55,074 bases of DNA. It comes from Bernardetiaceae bacterium. Its GTDB lineage: Bacteria > Bacteroidota > Bacteroidia > Cytophagales > Thermoflexibacteraceae. The DNA is taken from assembly GCA_025454895.1 (NCBI GenBank), contig JALONO010000037.1:1-55074 (forward strand), read 5' to 3'. The notes beneath the pieces were generated by a model, which made no database searches, was not told the origin of the DNA, and saw nothing but the letters and a program-made list of their open reading frames with translations. Below are positions 4,325 to 53,939 of this stretch, piece by piece. Both the position numbers and the translations under genes were made by a program. Within the stretch, counting starts at the first letter, position 1. Every line of letters begins with the position of its first letter.

Positions 4325-4408
4325 GGAAAAGTTAAATTAAAAATAGCTTTATTTTGAGATAATAGTTGCAGTGCGACCTAAAAAAAGGTAGTTTATGAAG
4401 ATGAATAT

Positions 4409-4506
4409 TACCAAAATCAAATAAGCAATGTGGTTTCCTGATGCTGAAAGTAATAACTAAACAAGTAGAACAATCATTTAATCAGGCAATCATTGAGTCA
4501 TTTTAG
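4409..4506 (+). repeat. Dispersed intergenic repeat, copy 1 (diverged)
   Basis: Member of the ~100-bp family described in the findings. It starts TACCAAAATCAAAT, has a diverged middle, and ends with the AATCATT-rich half and AGTCATTTTAG. It lies upstream of the Crp gene and 92 bp past the stop of HMG-CoA synthase. Nothing else is evident in the 274-bp gap. Confidence 0.75.
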
Positions 4507-4598
4507 TGCAAAACCCCTGCCTCGCAGATGGAAGCAGGGGCAAATTAACCCAAATGAGTTGAGTTCAATCTATTGGCGGGCAAAACCGGGCCTGATGC

Positions 4599-17022: not shown

Positions 17023-17050
17023 CGGGCCCGGTTTTTCTTTTACGCATAAA

Positions 17051-17147
17051 TACCAAAATCAAATGGAGATTGCGGATTGCTTATCTTACAAATAATTGAT
17101 AATCAAGCGAAAAAGTTACTCAATCAGGCAATCGTTAAGTCACTCTA
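17051..17147 (+). repeat. Dispersed intergenic repeat, copy 2
   Basis: It starts TACCAAAATCAAAT, holds AATTGATAATCAA in the centre and ends GCAATCGTTAAGTCACTCTA. It fills the gap between two convergent genes, 28 bp after one stop and 19 bp before the other. Confidence 0.9.
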
Positions 17148-17166
17148 GAAAAATGCGCCCTTGCTG

Positions 17167-18688: not shown

Positions 18689-18810
18689 ACCGCTTTTCTA
18701 TCGGATCCATTGAGCAGGTATAAGTTTGGAGATACGTCAAGATTTGCCTTATTTAGCCCCACCTTGGCTGATAACAAAATCGAGGAGCGATTGCGTATTT
18801 GATGATGTTA

Positions 18811-19113
18811 TGCAAAAATCAAATGGAGATTGCGTATTCCTAGTCTTATAAGTGATTGGTAGTCATCTATAACGATCATTTAATAGGTCTCTTGCACATT
18901 AGGTTTTTGAACGAGTTTGTGGTCAAATTTTCGCTCAAAACCCGACCTTTTTAGCCCCACCCTATCCAGCAGCACCGGCTCGCCCCAAAAGCTCATTCGC
19001 TTTTGGTCGTCCGTCGGGGAGGGGACGCAATCTCGAACCGAGTAAGGATGATTTGAAAGGGTTTTAATCTAATCCGCAAGAGGTCTAATCATGCAATCAT
19101 TAAGTCATTTTAG
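18811..19113 (+). repeat. Dispersed intergenic repeat, copy 3, split by an insertion
   Basis: The left part (18811-18884) and the right part (19086-19113, CATGCAATCATTAAGTCATT) together make one family member. A 201-bp insert lies between them, flanked by TAAT on both sides. The gap's left part (18689-18810) carries no gene; it holds a TTTAGCCCCACC string that also occurs inside the insert. Confidence 0.85.
18885..19085. mobile_element. MITE-like 201-bp insertion
   Basis: Inserted within the dispersed repeat. The ends AGGTCTCTTGCACATTAGGTT and, on the other strand, AGACCTCTTGCGGATTAGATT match at 17 of 21 positions as inverted repeats. TAAT occurs at 18881-18884 and again at 19086-19089 as a target duplication, and removing one copy plus the insert restores the repeat consensus. 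It encodes no protein, so any transposase must be supplied from elsewhere. Confidence 0.8.
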
Positions 19114-24484: not shown

Positions 24485-24645
24485 CCCCCGCGCGCGGGCG
24501 GGGAGTCGCGTCCGCCCGCGCGCCCAGGCAGGCCGGATCGCCGGGCCTTTCTCCCGAAAAAACCTCTGCAAGCATACTATTTTAATAAAACGCCGTAAAT
24601 TGCTTGGGAAATTTAGCTGGGCGGGCAAACGGCACTCCTTTGGTT

Positions 24646-24744
24646 TACACCAAAATCGAGTGGAGATTGTCTGTCTTTGGCCTTTTAAATGATTGATAAT
24701 CAAAGAGAACAAACATTTAATCATGCAACCGTTTGCTCGTTTTA
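24646..24744 (+). repeat. Dispersed intergenic repeat, copy 4
   Basis: It starts TTTACACCAAAATCGAG, contains AATGATTGATAATCAAAGAG, and ends CATGCAACCGTTTGCTCG. The remainder of the 305-bp gap (24485-24645) is GC-rich just after the peptidase stop and holds nothing recognised. Confidence 0.85.
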
Positions 24745-26885: not shown

Positions 26886-27184
26886 AAAAGCCCCCAACCA
26901 CCTTTGCGTCTCCGCGCCTTTGCGAGAAACCCTTTTGAACAGACCCCCGAGTATATTTTGACGGAGGCAAAAAGCCCCCAACCACCTTTGCGTCTCCGCG
27001 CCTTTGCGAGAAACCCTTTTGAACAGACCCCCGAGTATATTTTGACGCAGGCAAAAAGCCCCAACCACCTTTGCGTCTCCGCGCCTTAGCGAGAACCCCT
27101 TTTTACCGACCCCCAAGTGTATTATGACGCAGTCAAAAGCCCCCAACCACCTTTGCGTCTCCGCGCCTCAGTGAGAAACCCTTG
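26886..27184 (+). repeat. 84-bp tandem repeat upstream of recA
   Basis: Three nearly identical 84/84/81-bp units and a partial fourth. Each unit opens AAAAGCCCCCAACCACC, then TTTGCGTCTCCGCGCC and GCGAGAAACCC, and closes near GTATATTTTGACG. Read on the minus strand it gives a repeated pseudo-peptide with SRKGAETQRW. The units are far too long and contiguous to be CRISPR. Confidence 0.9.
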
Positions 27185-27210
27185 ACCTCTCAAAAAATTA
27201 TTTATTGATA

Positions 27211-27243
27211 TTTGAAATATTAATTGAAAATACATTTACTTTG
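27211..27243 (+). promoter_or_regulatory. Likely recA promoter
   Basis: TTTG at 27211-27214 and TTACTTTG at 27236-27243 (one mismatch to TAnnTTTG) are 21 bp apart. The predicted leader is about 80 nt. I see no obvious LexA-type palindrome. Confidence 0.5.
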
Positions 27244-28390: not shown

Positions 28391-28526
28391 ACGTGAAGCC
28401 CTGGGTTGGTCAATAAAAGTAGGGTAATAGAATTTTTGTAAAATTATTTTCTATTTACCTAAAATCAACTGTTTGTAAAGTTTTAGTTTAGTAAGACCCC
28501 GATTTTTCTCTTACCAATCGGGCTAA

Positions 28527-28562
28527 CCCTTCAAGAGGCTTGATCTCTTGAAGGGTTTTTTC
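28527..28562 (+). terminator. Rho-independent terminator of recA
   Basis: An 11-bp perfect stem (28527-28537 with 28545-28555), a 7-nt loop, then TTTTTTT. It lies about 140 bp past the stop. Confidence 0.9.
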
Positions 28563-28582: not shown

Positions 28583-28826
28583 AGCCGCTGGCCGGGCGGG
28601 GCGCAACGGCTACTTAAATTGGAAAACCCAACCCAATAAGCTAATCATCAGACCATTGCAATTTTTTTCCATTGACCCGCATCGGTTGGCGGCCCGGCCG
28701 CGTTATTTAATTAATCCGGGAAAGCCCCGGCGTTTTTTCACCAACCAACCATTTGTAACATGAAGCTATGGCGCGATTTGAAACTACTGGCCCTGGGCGC
28801 GGGCCTGCTGGCCCTGGACGGCTGCC
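28583..28826 (+). repeat. Duplicated leader/signal-peptide cassette, copy 1
   Basis: This 244-bp block is nearly identical to 29267-29511, with only a few differences including one T in a T run. It covers the upstream region, a terminator-like hairpin, the start codon and the whole lipoprotein signal up to the lipobox Cys, where identity stops abruptly. Confidence 0.92.
28716..28738 (+). promoter_or_regulatory. Attenuator-like hairpin in leader, copy 1
   Basis: CCGGG (28716-28720) pairs with CCCGG (28726-28730), followed by CGTTTTTT, 21 bp before the start codon. The shape is that of a short intrinsic terminator placed inside a 5' leader. Confidence 0.45.
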
Positions 28827-29248
28827 GACCTAAAGACGACTGGGGCCAAACCGATACCCTCGTCGGGTTTTACGCGGCCGTGGTGGCCGTGGAGCCGGCG
28901 TGCGGCGAGTTCGGCTCGGTGGTGTTCGCGGTAAGCAAGGCATATGGCAACAGGCCCCCCTGGGATGGGATACTGCCCGACGACCATGTTCGCACCGTGG
29001 CGGGCCAGTACGGGGGGCGGGCCTACGGGCACTTGGTACGCATCGAGTTCCGGGAGCCGAACAGGCCCAACAGCGACCGCGACTCGTACCTCCGGGTCGG
29101 GGTGGGGGCCTGTGTCCAACTCAGTCCCCGGCGGGGGTAAAGGCCCCGCCTGCCCTGCGCCAACGACGACATCCCGGTCTATGCCTCGGGTTATGGGGCC
29201 ATCTCGCCCGACCCGGCCCAGTGCGCGGGCGTAACCGACCGCCGGTGA
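28760..29248 (+). pseudogene. Twin lipoprotein A, with in-frame stop
   Basis: Lipoprotein signal MKLWRDLKLLALGAGLLALD ending in GC (Cys22). The reading stops at TAA 29138-29140 after 126 residues. The same frame continues past the stop for 36 codons to a TGA at 29246, encoding CANDDIPVYASGYG, which aligns with CVRDQVPVYWFFDSG in the twin gene. Other shared blocks are QYGGRAYGHLVRIE against EYGGRYYPSLLRLR, and GVGACVQL against AVGACGRL. The intact protein would be about 162 residues. No known family is recognised. Either a truncated functional protein or a nonsense-mutated one. Confidence 0.75.
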
Positions 29249-29266
29249 GTTTTTACTTAAGTTCTA

Positions 29267-29511
29267 AGCCGCTGGCCGGGCGGGGCGCAACGGCTACTTA
29301 AATTGGAAAACCCAACCCAATAAGCTAATCATCAGACCATTGCAATTTTTTTTCCATTGACCCGCATCGGTTGGCGGCCCGGCCGCGTTATTTAATTAAG
29401 CCGGGAAAGCCCCGGCGTTTTTTCACCAACCAACCATTTGTAACATGAAGCTATGGCGCGATTTGAAATTACTGGCCCTGGGCACGGGCCTGCTGGCCCT
29501 GGACGGCTGCC
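29267..29511 (+). repeat. Duplicated leader/signal-peptide cassette, copy 2
   Basis: The second copy of the block at 28583-28826, offset by 684-685 bp. It fills the gap between the two twin genes and the first 67 bases of the second. Confidence 0.92.
29401..29423 (+). promoter_or_regulatory. Attenuator-like hairpin in leader, copy 2
   Basis: The same CCGGG/CCCGG stem and CGTTTTTT tail as in copy 1, again 21 bp before the start codon. Confidence 0.45.
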
Positions 29512-29891
29512 AAGACCGGATGAGCGACGCGACCGATGACAGGAAGGCATCGATCATAGGAAAGATCATCGCCTGGGAACAGTGCCAGGAGTATGGCTAC
29601 CTGGTGGTGGCAGTTACCGAATTGCCCTATTACGGCCCCCCCAAGGAAAGTTGGCGGGTGGTGGGCGGCGAATACGGCGGACGGTATTACCCTTCGCTCC
29701 TCCGCTTGCGGAGCCGTGATCCTCTTAGACCCGACAATGAAAGGACGGCCGTTGGGGCCTGCGGAAGATTGGTTTTTGAGCGGGAACCGCTATCCCAGCC
29801 CTGCGTCCGTGACCAAGTCCCGGTCTATTGGTTTTTCGACTCTGGCGCACAGCCCGGACCCGGTTGTTCAAACATTTTGGACCGGAAATAA
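29445..29891 (+). CDS. Twin lipoprotein B
   Basis: A 148-residue lipoprotein of unknown family with the same signal as its twin (lipobox Cys22 in LDGC). The mature part is only distantly similar to that of twin A, but cysteines at the AVGACG, QPCVRD and GPGCSN positions match cysteines in twin A and probably form disulfides. It lies 34 bp upstream of the T9SS protease gene and may be co-transcribed with it. A small secreted partner or inhibitor of the protease is conceivable but unsupported. Confidence 0.75.
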   Translation: MKLWRDLKLLALGTGLLALDGCQDRMSDATDDRKASIIGKIIAWEQCQEYGYLVVAVTELPYYGPPKESWRVVGGEYGGRYYPSLLRLRSRDPLRPDNERTAVGACGRLVFEREPLSQPCVRDQVPVYWFFDSGAQPGPGCSNILDRK

Positions 29892-29925: not shown

Positions 29926-31763
29926 ATGATAAAGTATCCTTCCTCTGTTCTATTTGCCGGACTGGTCTTTTCTTCTGCTGTCGGACTTCATACTTTCTCG
30001 GCCACAGCCCAAGAGGGTGATCAGGTGCAAACCTGTAACGCCAGCATCCTCTGTCAGCCCAACTATTTGCCCCAAGGGCAAACCGTGGTGCGACTCAGCT
30101 TTTTTGGTCTGGGCGGTACGGGCGTGTTGCTCCGTAATCCCAATCCCAGCGGCAATCCTTTCGTGCTCACGGCCTTTCACGTGCTGGATAATAACGGAAA
30201 TGGTTTGCTCGACCCGGACGAGATAGCCACGATATCCGACTCGAACCCGAACACATCAAATTCACTTGTTGTATTTGAGGACCGCAGTCTTTGCGGGGCC
30301 GCTAGTGTGGCAGGGCCGGGTGCTCGCCCAGCCGCTTACCTATTTGGGGCGACGGTGCGGGCCGCCGTCGAACGTATGATTTTGCTTTGCTCGAGCTGCG
30401 CGCCCCGGCCCCGTTCACGGCCAGTTACGCCACCCTGCGGTTTACCCGCAACCAGCAAGGTAGTTCGTTTACCATCCACCATCCTCGAGGCACTACCCAA
30501 CGCATCGCTTTTGGCAACAACACCAACAACCCGGCCACGGGCGGCGATTTTTTGGTAACTTTCAACGATGGCCGGGTGGCACCAATTTCTTCGGGCTGCC
30601 CGTTATTCAACCAAAACCGGGAGGTTTATAGCCTTCTTAAAAGAGGCCCCACCGCTTGTAACGAGCCTTGCCAACCAGGTGCGTTGTTTTGTGGCAATTC
30701 TGAGTTCGTGCCGGTCATCGATGCCTGGTACGGCTCCGCCTTGGCTGGCGATCCCGGGGCCATCAGCAGCCTAGGGGCCTGGCTTAATGGCAGCGGGGGC
30801 CAAGGAGTACCTGGGCTACCCCCGGCCACCTATCCTGGTGGCATCCCCTCCCGGCTCACCGGGCCGGACGTGGTTTGCGGCCCCAGTTGGTACAGCTTGC
30901 CGGAGTACCCGAACGGGCTGCCCGCCGGGCTGCCGCTCACCTGGGAGCTATCCGGCAACCTGCGCGAGGTGGGCCGCACCGCCAACGGCATTTTGGTGGA
31001 GCCCAACTTTAACAGCAGCCAGGCCGGGGGGCCGGGCTTTGTAACGGCGGCGGTGCTCAACCCGGCCGTTTCCCCGCTGGCCTTCCAAACCAGCCGCTCG
31101 CGCCGCGATCTGCAAGTGGGCACGCCCGCCAATACGGGCATCACCCTCACCAACCAAACCAACGGCACCTCGTTCACGGTGGGGCAGGGCGGCAACCTGG
31201 TGCTGTGCGCCAACCGGCAAAACATTTTGCTGGCCAGCTACAACCAGCCGGGCGGCGTAACGGGCGGCTCGTGGCAGTTCCCCGCCGACTGGCAGGTGTC
31301 CCCGGTGTCGGGCAGCAACTCGGCCAGTGTTTGGCCCTTGGGGGGCAGCACGGGCAATATCGTGTATTTCCCCGGCAATGTTTGCGGGCAGGCCACCATC
31401 CCCGCAGTGGTTCCGGCCACGGTGCTGTTCTCGGGCGGGCCGTGCGGGTTCGGCGGTTGGGGCGTCGGCCGCCTGTCGGTTTGGCCCAACCCGGCCACCG
31501 AGACCGTAACGGTGGAGCTGCCCGCCGCCGGGCGCGGCCCGGCCACGGCTACCGCTGGCCAAGGGGGACCCACCGGCCTGCAACTGTACTCGGCCATGGG
31601 CCAGTTGGTGCGCTCGCAGCCTTGGCCCGCCGGGCTGGCCAGCACCAGCGTGGACCTGCGCGGGCTGCTCCCGGGCGTGTACGTGCTGCACGTAACCTTC
31701 CCCGACCGGGTGGAGGTGCGGCGGATCGTGGTGGACCAGCCCACCAATAGCTTGAGCAATTGA
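29926..31763 (+). pseudogene. Trypsin-like protease with T9SS sorting domain, frameshifted
   Basis: The gene reads in two frames. Frame one starts at the ATG at 29926, has a Sec signal (ending ATAQ) and a chymotrypsin-fold start, LGGTGVLLRN and VLTAFHVLD (catalytic His). Frame two begins just before YDFALLELRAP (catalytic Asp) at about 30375 and runs to 31763 with HHPRGTTQRI and SSGCPLFNQN (catalytic Ser, with Cys where a second Gly or Ser is usual). It ends in a T9SS sorting domain (SVWPNPATETVTVELP and PGVYVLHVTF). The shift is placed at about 30366-30376 and needs only a 1-2 base indel. If intact, this is a roughly 610-residue secreted lysyl-endopeptidase-like protease. Confidence 0.85.
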
Positions 31764-31813
31764 GGTAAATGGAGGATTTTGCTTGATTTTGAGTTGCTTA
31801 TCGGCCTAAGGCC

Positions 31814-31849
31814 AACCCGCCAAGCGTTTACAAATGCTTGGCGGGTTTT
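31814..31849 (+). terminator. Rho-independent terminator after the protease
   Basis: A 12-bp perfect stem (31814-31825 with 31836-31847), a 10-nt loop, then TTTT. Confidence 0.85.
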
Positions 31850-35874: not shown

Positions 35875-35997
35875 GGGTTTTTTGTTGCCCAGCCAATTTT
35901 TTGTGCGGCCAATTTTTTTGACCTTAATTCATAATATGCGATTTTCTTATCTAATAAAGAATTGTGGACTTCTTGTCCGGAGAGCAACCAGAGTCGT

Positions 35998-36085
35998 TAT
36001 ACCAAAATCAAATAGAGGTTGCTTATTTCTTATCTCATAAGTGATTGACAATCAAATGGAGCAATCATTTAGTCATTTTAGTATT
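35998..36085 (+). repeat. Dispersed intergenic repeat, copy 6
   Basis: It begins TATACCAAAATCAAATAG and ends AGTCATTTTAGTATT; the ends are a short inverted repeat. A second fragment (GCAATCATTTTAGCATTA) lies at about 36152-36169. The gap 35875-36177 holds no gene. Confidence 0.9.
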
Positions 36086-36177
36086 AAATCAACTATCTGA
36101 TTTTCAATCTACAACGACGCCAATGAGTCGGTGATTTAGAGGCAGTAACTGTGCAATCATTTTAGCATTATCAACCC

Positions 36178-40026: not shown

Positions 40027-40103
40027 CTATCAGGATTTTAGCCAGAATAGCCCCGGCATTTGGGCCGTTAGGGGTTGAACCAAAAGATTACCCTGCCAGT
40101 TAA

Positions 40104-40203
40104 TAGTAAAATGACTTAATGATTGCATGATCAACAAATAGTTCTCCTTGTTTGTCAGCCATTTACAGCTCAGGCCATGCAATTATCATTTGATTTTGGT
40201 ATA
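40104..40203 (-). repeat. Dispersed intergenic repeat, copy 7 (reverse)
   Basis: It runs from TAGTAAAATGACTTAATG to GATTTTGGTATAA with a diverged centre. It lies 77 bp after the desaturase stop. The rest of the gap (40204-40349) has no recognised feature. Confidence 0.85.
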
Positions 40204-40349
40204 AAGTAGGATGATCAAAAGTTTGCCGTTGTTTACTTCAGCCTAGGCAAATGGTTAGTAAATTTGTTTTTTGGTAGACCTGCCTTGGCAAAATTGCGGG
40301 TTAACCAATCTGTTTTGCGCCACAATCGCCTTTAAATAAATTAATTACG

Positions 40350-41978: not shown

Positions 41979-42009
41979 GTTCCTCTAAAAAAGCTTTGGT
42001 TTTTTCTTA

Positions 42010-42299
42010 TTAATCCCAAAATTAAATTGTGATTGGGGATTATTGTTGTGATAAATAATTGATAATCAGACAATAAATTATACCAAAATCAAATAGAGAT
42101 TGCGTATTTTCTATCTTGTAAGTAATTGATAATCAAAGATAAAAATCGTTTGATCATGCAATCATTTAGTTATTTTAGTATTATGTAGTCATGCAGTCGT
42201 TAATCCCAAAATCAAATTGAGATCGTGCATTTTTTATTGTTAAAAATGATTGATAGGCTGAACAATCATGCAATCATTAAGTCATTTAGTCATTTTACC
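42010..42299 (+). repeat. Cluster of three dispersed repeats (copies 8, 9, 10)
   Basis: A partial copy at 42010-42078 (AATCCCAAAATTAAATTG to TTGATAATCAG) abuts a full copy at 42079-42182 (TATACCAAAATCAAATAG to TATTTTAGTATTATG) and another at 42199-42299 (TTAATCCCAAAATCAAATTG to AGTCATTTAGTCATTTTACC). Two left-end subtypes are visible, TACCAAAATC and TCCCAAAATC. No gene lies in the 484-bp gap. Confidence 0.88.
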
Positions 42300-51264: not shown

Positions 51265-51456
51265 ATATACTAAAATGACTCATGCAAAAATGACTAAATG
51301 ATAGCATGATTAAATGATTGTTTCATTTGATTGTCAATCATTTGTAAGTTAAGTAATCTTCATTTTACTATTTTGGGACGAATGATTGCACGATTAAGTG
51401 ATTGTATGTCTGGTTATCAATCATAGAAACACGAAATCCCTAATTGATTTTGGTAT
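51265..51456 (-). repeat. Dispersed intergenic repeats, copies 11 and 12 in tandem (reverse)
   Basis: One copy at 51265-51378 (TATACTAAAATGACT to CTATTTTGGGA) and a second, right-end-truncated one at 51380-51456 (AATGATTGCACGATTAAG to TTGATTTTGGTAT), head to tail. Nothing is recognised between 51457 and 51541. Confidence 0.85.
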
Positions 51457-53667: not shown

Positions 53668-53720
53668 AACAGCAGGAATTGATTGAGCAATATTAGGCAA
53701 AAAAGGCTTCTGGGGTGTAA

Positions 53721-53823
53721 TATAAAGATGACTTAATGATTGCATGATTAAATGATTGTGCCAATTGGTTATCGATCATTTAAAGAGCAAGGAATACGCA
53801 ATCGCTATTTGATTTTGGTATAA
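53721..53823 (-). repeat. Dispersed intergenic repeat, copy 13 (reverse)
   Basis: A well-preserved copy from TATAAAGATGACTTAATG to GATTTTGGTATAA, just upstream of coaBC. The rest of the gap up to 54105 holds only a terminator-like hairpin. Confidence 0.9.
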
Positions 53824-53939
53824 TAAAAAGATTTTTACGCTGATTATCAAGGGTTTAGGAGAAATGAGCAGGGCAAGGGTTTTGCCAAACCCCGGTTGCA
53901 TCCGCCTTGCCCTGGGCAAAGCCATCGTCCTGGTGCAAA

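What the first reader, a model, noticed from the sequence alone, without database searches (positions are those of the whole stretch)
28583..29511. Twin lipoprotein genes share an almost identical leader and signal peptide but have divergent mature parts
Bases 28583-28826 and 29267-29511 are near-identical (a handful of differences). The identity ends exactly at the lipobox Cys; beyond it the proteins are only distantly similar, with matching Cys and short blocks such as YGGR and VGAC. Either a 5' cassette is being homogenised by gene conversion, or mature domains are swapped behind a fixed expression/secretion module. This resembles diversifying surface-lipoprotein families in other bacteria, which is an analogy only.
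Basis: partly seen in the sequence, partly recalled or inferred. Interest (0 to 1): 0.65.

Follow-up and report, generated by a model that had tools for sequence, protein, structure and literature searches.

The report
Shared-leader lipoproteins beside a secreted protease
Two neighbouring genes for small surface lipoproteins carry an almost identical 'on-switch plus export tag' in front of very different working parts, next to a secreted protease gene; a related bacterium shows the same arrangement with apparently unrelated working parts, so this looks like a mix-and-match surface-protein locus rather than ordinary gene duplicates.

Summary
In detail: 28583-28826 and 29267-29511 are 98.4% identical over 245 columns, and identity stops one base past the lipobox Cys codon. 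The draft genome holds a third copy, split over the ends of contigs C236 and C285. The three mature parts are homologous but only 26-36% identical, with saturated silent sites (dS 1.6 to over 3) against 0-1 silent differences in the signal peptide. Plain recent duplication cannot give this; recombinational homogenisation of the 5' module, or replacement of mature parts behind it, can. The leader was not found in relatives. Thermoflexibacter ruber (same family) has its own repeated leader, at its equivalent locus and in an array; there one leader and signal peptide precede mature parts with no detected similarity, and an 8-bp repeat sets the frame. In the window, C285 and T. ruber a small lipoprotein gene directly precedes a T9SS-type serine-protease gene or its remnant, the gene order of Tannerella potempin/KLIKK operons, so I propose protease inhibitors (inferred). 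All three protease genes are interrupted or deleted, and lipoprotein copy 1 has a stop. Verdict: new variant of a known kind; first reading partly supported.

The parts
28583..28759 (+). Copy 1 untranslated leader (177 bp); the first 94 bp are shared with copy 2 only, the rest also with copy 3
28760..28825 (+). Copy 1 signal peptide through lipobox Cys (MKLWRDLKLLALGAGLLALDGC)
   Evidence: the lipobox has Asp at -2, which is not the usual residue (recalled)
28826..29245 (+). Copy 1 mature part, interrupted by in-frame TAA (29138-29140); alignable codons run on in frame to TGA 29243-29245; GC3 0.84
29267..29444 (+). Copy 2 untranslated leader (178 bp)
29445..29510 (+). Copy 2 signal peptide through lipobox Cys
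29511..29891 (+). Copy 2 mature part after the Cys, open reading frame uninterrupted (126 aa, then stop), four further Cys; low-confidence model has five strands
29926..31763 (+). Secreted trypsin-like protease gene with C-terminal T9SS sorting domain, 34 bp after copy 2; read in two frames that change near 30370
31773..31849 (+). 77-bp 3' segment with a palindrome, matched in full (95%) only at the end of the C285 cluster; 33-43 bp of its palindrome part recur on four other contigs

Best explanation
The window holds two tandem members of a three-member family of small, probably surface-exposed lipoproteins, seen so far only in this genome, placed directly upstream of a T9SS-type secreted serine-protease gene. 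SHOWN: the 5' module (untranslated leader plus signal peptide to the lipobox Cys) is nearly identical, while the mature parts are old homologues with saturated silent sites. INFERRED: ectopic RecA-type homologous recombination between the copies (gene conversion, or crossovers that bring a new mature part behind the old leader) keeps the module uniform. It stops where homology ends, at the Cys codon, so one expression and export cassette serves a diversifying set of mature domains. SHOWN in T. ruber (same family): an analogous repeated leader, at the equivalent locus and in an array on another contig, precedes different products, and one pair shares leader and signal peptide but no detected similarity further on; swapping behind a fixed module therefore very likely happens in this group. 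INFERRED function: the small lipoproteins are surface-anchored inhibitors of the neighbouring secreted protease, as potempins are for KLIKK proteases in Tannerella; changing partner proteases would drive the divergence of the mature parts. My odds: mosaic or recombinational origin about 0.8; protease-inhibitor function about 0.35 (lowered from 0.4 on checking, because the T. ruber protease gene too has an in-frame stop before its tail).
For: Identity and boundary. Third copy and its place. Silent sites: signal peptide 0-1 differences in about 18.5 sites, mature pS 0.66-0.74; binomial P about 1e-7 or less. Shared 5' and 3' ends of the C213 and C285 loci with a replaced middle. Differing base composition of the mature parts (GC3 0.84, 0.66, 0.60) and of the two parts of the protease gene (0.57, 0.80). 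T. ruber: leader repeated, followed by small lipoproteins, larger lipoproteins and an ORF that looks secreted (my reading); larger-lipoprotein pair upstream 102 of 103 aligned bases, and 77 of 77 bases from after the 8-bp repeat to two codons past the Cys, identical, then identity at shuffle level; Pfam DUF4848 (E 8e-4, below its cut-off) versus DUF3103 (E 1e-7, above its cut-off). Gene order lipoprotein then protease: window gap 34 bp, C285 33 bp before a deleted remnant, T. ruber 51 bp. Protease homology window/T. ruber E 6e-33, Trypsin_2 in T. ruber, T9SS tail in the window. Potempin genes directly precede KLIKK protease genes and are stated to inhibit them (PMC7296668, passages; gene order also PMC4404884, passages). 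Model: five strands; potempin C (8ehe_B) Z 4.3, 87 aligned, 4.0 A, tied with many OB-type rows.
Against: Only 3 copies found in the draft genome, all of one mature family. No recombination in progress was seen. T. ruber's small lipoproteins are not shown to be homologous to the window's (hhalign P 0.16 and 0.06), and the two leaders share no detected sequence (the T. ruber leader matched G000 only at 32 and 24 bp on other contigs). No sequence match to any solved potempin. The structure model is weak (pLDDT 61) and the best Foldseek E was 0.24. The protease gene is interrupted at all three loci seen: frame change in the window, mostly deleted in C285, in-frame TAG before the tail in T. ruber, so an inhibitor may have no working partner there. 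In the T. ruber pair BLASTP aligns 21 of 42 residues, reaching about 30 residues past the Cys, so a short stretch beyond the Cys may also be shared. Selection on the leader as a regulatory element could add to its identity.
Confidence: 0.53

Rival explanations
1. Ordinary old paralogues whose leader and signal peptide stayed the same only because of purifying selection on a promoter, RNA element or signal peptide.
For: All three copies keep the ~83 bp before ATG and the signal peptide with few changes; hairpin-plus-T sites lie in the leader (7 found in the region, 2.8 expected).
Against: Silent sites of the signal peptide are frozen too. The first 94 bp are about 99% identical between copies 1 and 2 yet absent from copy 3, so they are not needed in every copy. 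No Rfam family in the leader, RNA fold no better than shuffles (z -0.68), and T. ruber uses a leader without detected similarity.
Confidence: 0.12
2. Recent tandem duplication followed by very fast positive selection or targeted hypermutation of the mature part.
For: Tandem arrangement and near-identical 5' part.
Against: Silent sites in the mature part are saturated and there are several indels; the third copy shows the same pattern at another locus; positive selection on amino acids would not saturate silent sites. A template repeat or mutator gene was not specifically searched for.
Confidence: 0.05
3. Vpma-like site-specific phase switching: a recombinase acts in the conserved leader to put different lipoprotein genes behind one promoter.
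For: Conserved leader plus signal peptide and variable mature part, as in vpma (PMC12103780, passages). The exact 99-bp overlap between the C236 and C285 ends suggests that this 99-mer had a second neighbour in the reads (inference).
Against: No recombinase among the 7 window genes scanned between 21.9 and 35.9 kb, other than RecA; both copies in the window have their own complete leader in the same orientation; the third copy lies on other contigs.
Confidence: 0.08
4. Assembly or binning artefact.
For: Fragmented draft (389 contigs), leader at contig ends.
Against: The copies differ at four places and have different flanks and mature parts within one 55-kb contig; the longest exact run between them is 86 bp, below the 99-bp overlap seen at contig ends; the strain genome of T. 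ruber shows the same pattern.
Confidence: 0.04

Closest known systems
Borrelia Erp/OspEF/Elp lipoproteins (upstream homology box)
   Same: One promoter/leader-peptide/sorting segment in front of mature parts of many origins, with recombination (PMC10016077, passages). The T. ruber larger lipoproteins match this closely; the window weakly (one mature family).
   Different: Different phylum; here on a contig with recA and other housekeeping genes (cp32 prophage plasmids in Borrelia); here linked to a T9SS protease gene. Sequence similarity to Erp was not tested.
Potempin/KLIKK protease operons of Tannerella forsythia
   Same: Small lipoprotein gene directly upstream of a T9SS-type protease gene; lipoproteins highly diverged; identical motifs and near-identical tails shared among the proteases there (PMC4404884, PMC7296668, passages).
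   Different: No KLIKK ending; in T. forsythia the lipoprotein genes are reported to share no significant similarity at amino-acid or nucleotide level, whereas here leader and signal peptide are near-identical; two lipoprotein genes before one protease gene here.
Mycoplasma agalactiae Vpma
   Same: Conserved 5' UTR and 25-aa leader, variable mature lipoprotein (PMC12103780, passages).
   Different: Xer1 recombinase and a single promoter there; no recombinase among the 7 neighbours scanned here.
Neisseria Opa (recalled, no call)
   Same: Short repeat in the signal-peptide codons sets the frame, like the 8-bp repeat in T. ruber.
   Different: Outer-membrane proteins, pentanucleotide repeat; no such repeat seen in the window genes.

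Membership tests
Potempin/KLIKK operon | Small lipoprotein gene directly precedes the protease gene | tested here: met
   Gap 34 bp in the window, 33 bp in C285 (protease remnant), 51 bp in T. ruber
Potempin/KLIKK operon | Protease carries a T9SS C-terminal domain | tested here: met
   Window: TIGR04183 E 9e-8, Por_Secre_tail E 6e-7, but in another frame than the protease start
Potempin/KLIKK operon | Protease ends in KLIKK | tested here: not met
   Ends ...QPTNSLSN
Potempin/KLIKK operon | Protease gene intact | tested here: not met
   Frame change in the window, deletion in C285, in-frame TAG in T. ruber; draft errors not excluded
Potempin/KLIKK operon | Inhibitor fold (potempin C, 8ehe) | tested here: inconclusive
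   Model pLDDT 61; 8ehe_B Z 4.3, 87 aligned, 4.0 A among tied OB-type rows; no sequence match
Potempin/KLIKK operon | Lipoprotein inhibits the adjacent protease | not testable with these tools
   Needs an assay
Erp-type shared-leader family | Common 5' segment before mature parts of independent origin | tested here: inconclusive
   Window: one mature family. T. ruber: no detected similarity between two mature parts behind one leader
Erp-type shared-leader family | Carried on cp32-like prophage plasmid | tested here: not met
   Contig with recA, thiolase, M16 peptidase genes
Vpma | Adjacent site-specific recombinase | tested here: not met
   No recombinase domain among the 7 window genes scanned at 21.9-35.9 kb other than RecA; smaller ORFs and the rest of the genome were not searched

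The most novel reading that the evidence does not exclude
In Thermoflexibacteraceae, and perhaps wider Bacteroidota, T9SS protease/inhibitor loci work as a cassette system. One expression-plus-surface-export module is copied between lipoprotein genes, recombination swaps inhibitor-like or unrelated mature domains behind it, and in T. ruber octanucleotide slippage turns individual members on or off. It would be an Erp-like and Opa-like diversification engine in bacteria not known for a vertebrate immune system to evade.
Probability: 0.3. Interest if true: 0.75.

Novelty: new variant of a known kind. Interest (0 to 1): 0.52.

Why it matters
Shared-leader, variable-body lipoprotein families are known from host-associated spirochaetes and mycoplasmas, where immune escape is the usual explanation. 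Finding the same architecture in this lineage (Bacteroidota by its T9SS tail and its family with T. ruber), tied to T9SS proteases, would point to another driver (protease/inhibitor co-evolution, phage or competitor pressure). It would also extend the potempin-type 'protease plus lipoprotein guard' arrangement beyond Tannerella. T. ruber has a named, deposited strain (DSM 9560), so this can be tested directly.

Tried and rejected
Chance: rejected (E 4e-118). RNA element: no Rfam match in the leader at E up to 1 (the one listed match, E 0.24, lies at 28414-28562); fold z -0.68. Family databases: no Pfam or NCBIfam match for copy 2 or copy 3, nor Pfam for copy 1. Relatives of the mature family: 1 of 13 family genomes and 1 of 395 phylum genomes, each being the own genome; 4 of 390 order genomes at E up to 0.01, three of them weak (E 0.002-0.006 per genome, about the number chance gives) and set aside. 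Searches scored at most 10 candidates per genome. Copy 2 mature part: none in plasmids or phages. None in genome contigs (241 stretches, patterns from the signal peptide only). The protease scan of genome contigs used exact patterns of the T. ruber protein and returned only that locus itself.

Leader DNA in 390 order genomes: 12 other genomes had matches of only 22-49 bp in the GC-rich signal-peptide part, set aside as chance. That call scored only two candidates per genome and so missed two of the four own matches; it is a weak negative. (59 genomes including the own, up to 13 candidates scored per genome, 52 of 59 at least 90% complete) is the stronger negative.

First structure model (pLDDT 47) was not used. 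Foldseek rows for the second model are not significant.

Literature: 0 papers; 8 listed, none on this by title; listings. Passages also seen but not used above: PMC2824730, PMC7002432, PMC7014623. I make no claim that the T. ruber array is unpublished beyond these searches.

Full report
Observation. The two stretches named are 98.4% identical over 245 columns. They span 177-178 bp of untranslated leader and 66 bp of code up to the lipobox Cys. Four columns differ: a T7/T8 run, one leader base, and two signal-peptide bases of which one is silent. Identity starts at 28583/29267, after a terminator-like hairpin behind recA in copy 1 and after the end of gene 1 in copy 2. For this pair it ends one base into the codon after the Cys.

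Extra copies. The own genome (4.58 Mb in 389 contigs, 95.6% complete; the window is the whole of contig C213) gives four leader matches: the two in the window, one at the end of C285 and one at the end of C236. The last 99 bp of C236 equal the first 99 bp of C285 read backwards, so these are most likely one third copy broken at an assembly node. The overlap begins exactly where C236 becomes similar to copies 1 and 2. An assembler usually breaks at such a node when the same 99-mer has a second neighbour in the reads (recalled), which hints at a further copy or arrangement in the sampled population (inference). The third gene (C285:5161-5607, minus) encodes a 148-aa lipoprotein. A profile of the three finds no fourth member in the draft genome.

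Silent sites decide between origins. In the signal peptide plus Cys (22 codons) the pairs 1-2, 1-3 and 2-3 show 1, 0 and 1 silent differences in about 18.5 sites. In the mature parts, pS is 0.66, 0.74 and 0.74, giving dS 1.6, 3.2 and 3.5 (saturated), with 45/126, 44/126 and 32/121 residues identical. At the mature rate, one or fewer silent changes in 18 sites has a probability of about 1e-7 or less. So neither recent duplication followed by amino-acid selection, nor protein-level constraint on the signal peptide, explains the contrast. Copies 1 and 3 share CRPKDDWG from the Cys on, but with silent differences in 3 of the 7 codons after it: the nucleotide homogenisation ends at the Cys codon here as well. 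KDD near the Cys resembles the surface export signal K-(D/E)2 (PMC5080379, abstract and passages), although one place further from the Cys than the reported optimum in Capnocytophaga; copy 2 lacks it.

Mosaic signs around it. The mature parts differ in base composition: GC3 0.84 for copy 1, 0.66 for copy 2 and 0.60 for copy 3, against a mean of 0.72 and s.d. 0.11 for 53 ORFs of 200 aa or more from four contigs or parts of contigs (ORFs chosen mechanically). The protease gene that follows copy 2 (29926-31763) is read in two frames that change near 30370. Its first part has GC3 0.57, its second 0.80. The C213 and C285 loci share the 5' module, two short pieces of the protease gene (36 and 61 bp, 94% and 77%) and a 77-bp 3' segment at 95%. 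In the whole genome this 3' segment matches in full only at these two loci; 33-43 bp of its palindrome part recur on four other contigs. In C285 most of the protease is gone, and a small HTH-like gene, a larger lipoprotein gene and a gene for a probable outer-membrane protein (my reading; no match reaches a curated cut-off) occupy the middle. Both loci therefore look like mosaics between shared ends. Whether the frame change is biological or a draft error cannot be told here.

The relative that shows the principle. The second-frame part of the protease matched 24 of 291 order genomes at E up to 1e-6, the own included (at most 5 candidates scored per genome). Apart from the own, only the match in G006, of the same family, spans the query (1-453 of 461, E 6e-33, 30% identity); the rest cover the sorting tail or part of the catalytic region. 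That contig is Thermoflexibacter ruber DSM 9560. There a 133-aa lipoprotein gene directly precedes the trypsin-like protease gene (Trypsin_2 E 1e-9), whose frame holds a TAG before the tail. A larger lipoprotein gene follows, weakly related to the C285 one (BLASTP E 4e-6; another T. ruber member E 4e-8). The 225 bp upstream of the small gene stand in T. ruber at 9 places with 69 bp or more at 92-100% identity, the query's own place included: two in C18, six in C94, one in C29; two shorter matches were also listed. They precede two small lipoprotein genes, four larger lipoprotein genes, an ORF that looks secreted (my reading), a stretch with masked bases, and a contig end. Two of the larger lipoproteins (C94:8643 and 10781) share 102 of 103 aligned upstream bases and the 77 bases from the 8-bp repeat to two codons past the Cys. 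From nine residues past the Cys their identity (66 of 261, 25%) is that of shuffled sequence (mean 23%, maximum 31% in 20 shuffles); BLASTP joins 21 of 42 residues, about 30 of them past the Cys, and nothing convincing beyond. Their Pfam matches differ: DUF4848 (E 8e-4, below its cut-off) and DUF3103 (E 1e-7). That is best read as swapping of mature domains behind one fixed module. The two T. ruber small lipoproteins share 252 of 265 aligned upstream bases but only 26 of 120 residues.

A switch in T. ruber. The signal-peptide code of the four larger lipoproteins holds (ATTTCCAA)n with n = 1, 8, 4 and 5. With 1 and 8 units the ATG is in frame with the lipobox; with 4 and 5 it is not. This is the usual layout of slippage phase variation (recalled). 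The n = 1 gene is broken by a frame change further on. The window genes show no such repeat; their T7/T8 run lies in untranslated DNA.

Function. Lipoprotein then T9SS-type protease, 34 bp apart in the window, 33 bp in C285 and 51 bp in T. ruber, is the order of the Tannerella KLIKK operons. There each protease gene is preceded by a small lipoprotein gene (PMC4404884, passages), named potempin and stated to inhibit that protease (PMC7296668, passages). A weak model of copy 2 (pLDDT 61) has five strands. Potempin C (8ehe_B) appears at Z 4.3, 87 residues, 4.0 A, tied with many OB-type folds, and Foldseek alone was not significant. No sequence link was found. All three protease genes seen are interrupted or deleted, which weakens the case for a working pair today. 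I therefore call them potempin-like by gene order only, at about 0.35 (0.4 before I checked the T. ruber stop).

What is not shown. The window leader was seen in no other genome (1 of 59, the own; one search is a weaker negative). T. ruber's leader has no detected similarity to it, and its small lipoproteins are not proven homologues. No recombinase gene was found among the seven window genes scanned around the locus other than recA itself, whose position just upstream may be coincidence. Gene conversion and mature-part replacement remain unresolved for the window genes.

Verdict. A real, non-trivial mosaic lipoprotein locus: a new variant of the known shared-leader/variable-body kind (closest in pattern to Borrelia Erp, PMC10016077, passages), joined to a protease-lipoprotein gene pair of the potempin type.

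Noticed in passing
L066 (G006:C94) 8643, 10781, 4136 and L052 (G006:C18) 2799: Four larger T. ruber lipoprotein genes carry (ATTTCCAA)n in the signal-peptide code; n = 1 and 8 in frame, 4 and 5 out of frame: likely slippage phase variation.
   Followed up: partly
window 26886-27218: Four tandem copies of an 84-nt unit in the intergenic region upstream of recA; two are 99% identical.
   Followed up: no
window 4401-4507, 17038-17148, 18807-18884, 24645-24743, 35996-36094, 40099-40204, 42001-42255, 51286-51456, 53718-53824; C236 6176-6270: Interspersed repeat of about 100 bp in both orientations at nine or so places in the window; REP-like, not identified.
   Followed up: no
window 29926-31763: Protease gene changes frame near 30370, where GC3 also steps from 0.57 to 0.80: a possible recombination junction or a draft error.
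   Followed up: partly
L052 721-2394: The T. ruber protease homologue is interrupted by an in-frame TAG between protease part and sorting tail, so all three relatives of this gene seen here are broken.
   Followed up: partly
C236:19794-19892 and C285:5594-5692: Contig ends overlap by exactly 99 bp, starting where homology to copies 1 and 2 starts: suggests a second neighbour of this 99-mer in the reads.
   Followed up: partly
L052 1969-2449 and 5309-5789: In T. ruber the 3' part of the protease gene, with the T9SS-like tail code, is repeated at 95.6% after a beta-barrel-like gene; KLIKK proteases also share near-identical tails (PMC4404884, abstract).
   Followed up: no
L008:4604-4891 (-) and L066:12752-13081: Small related HTH-type proteins (34% over 50 aa) sit beside the lipoprotein genes in both genomes; a 3' fragment of the T. 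ruber one is repeated before two other leader copies.
   Followed up: no
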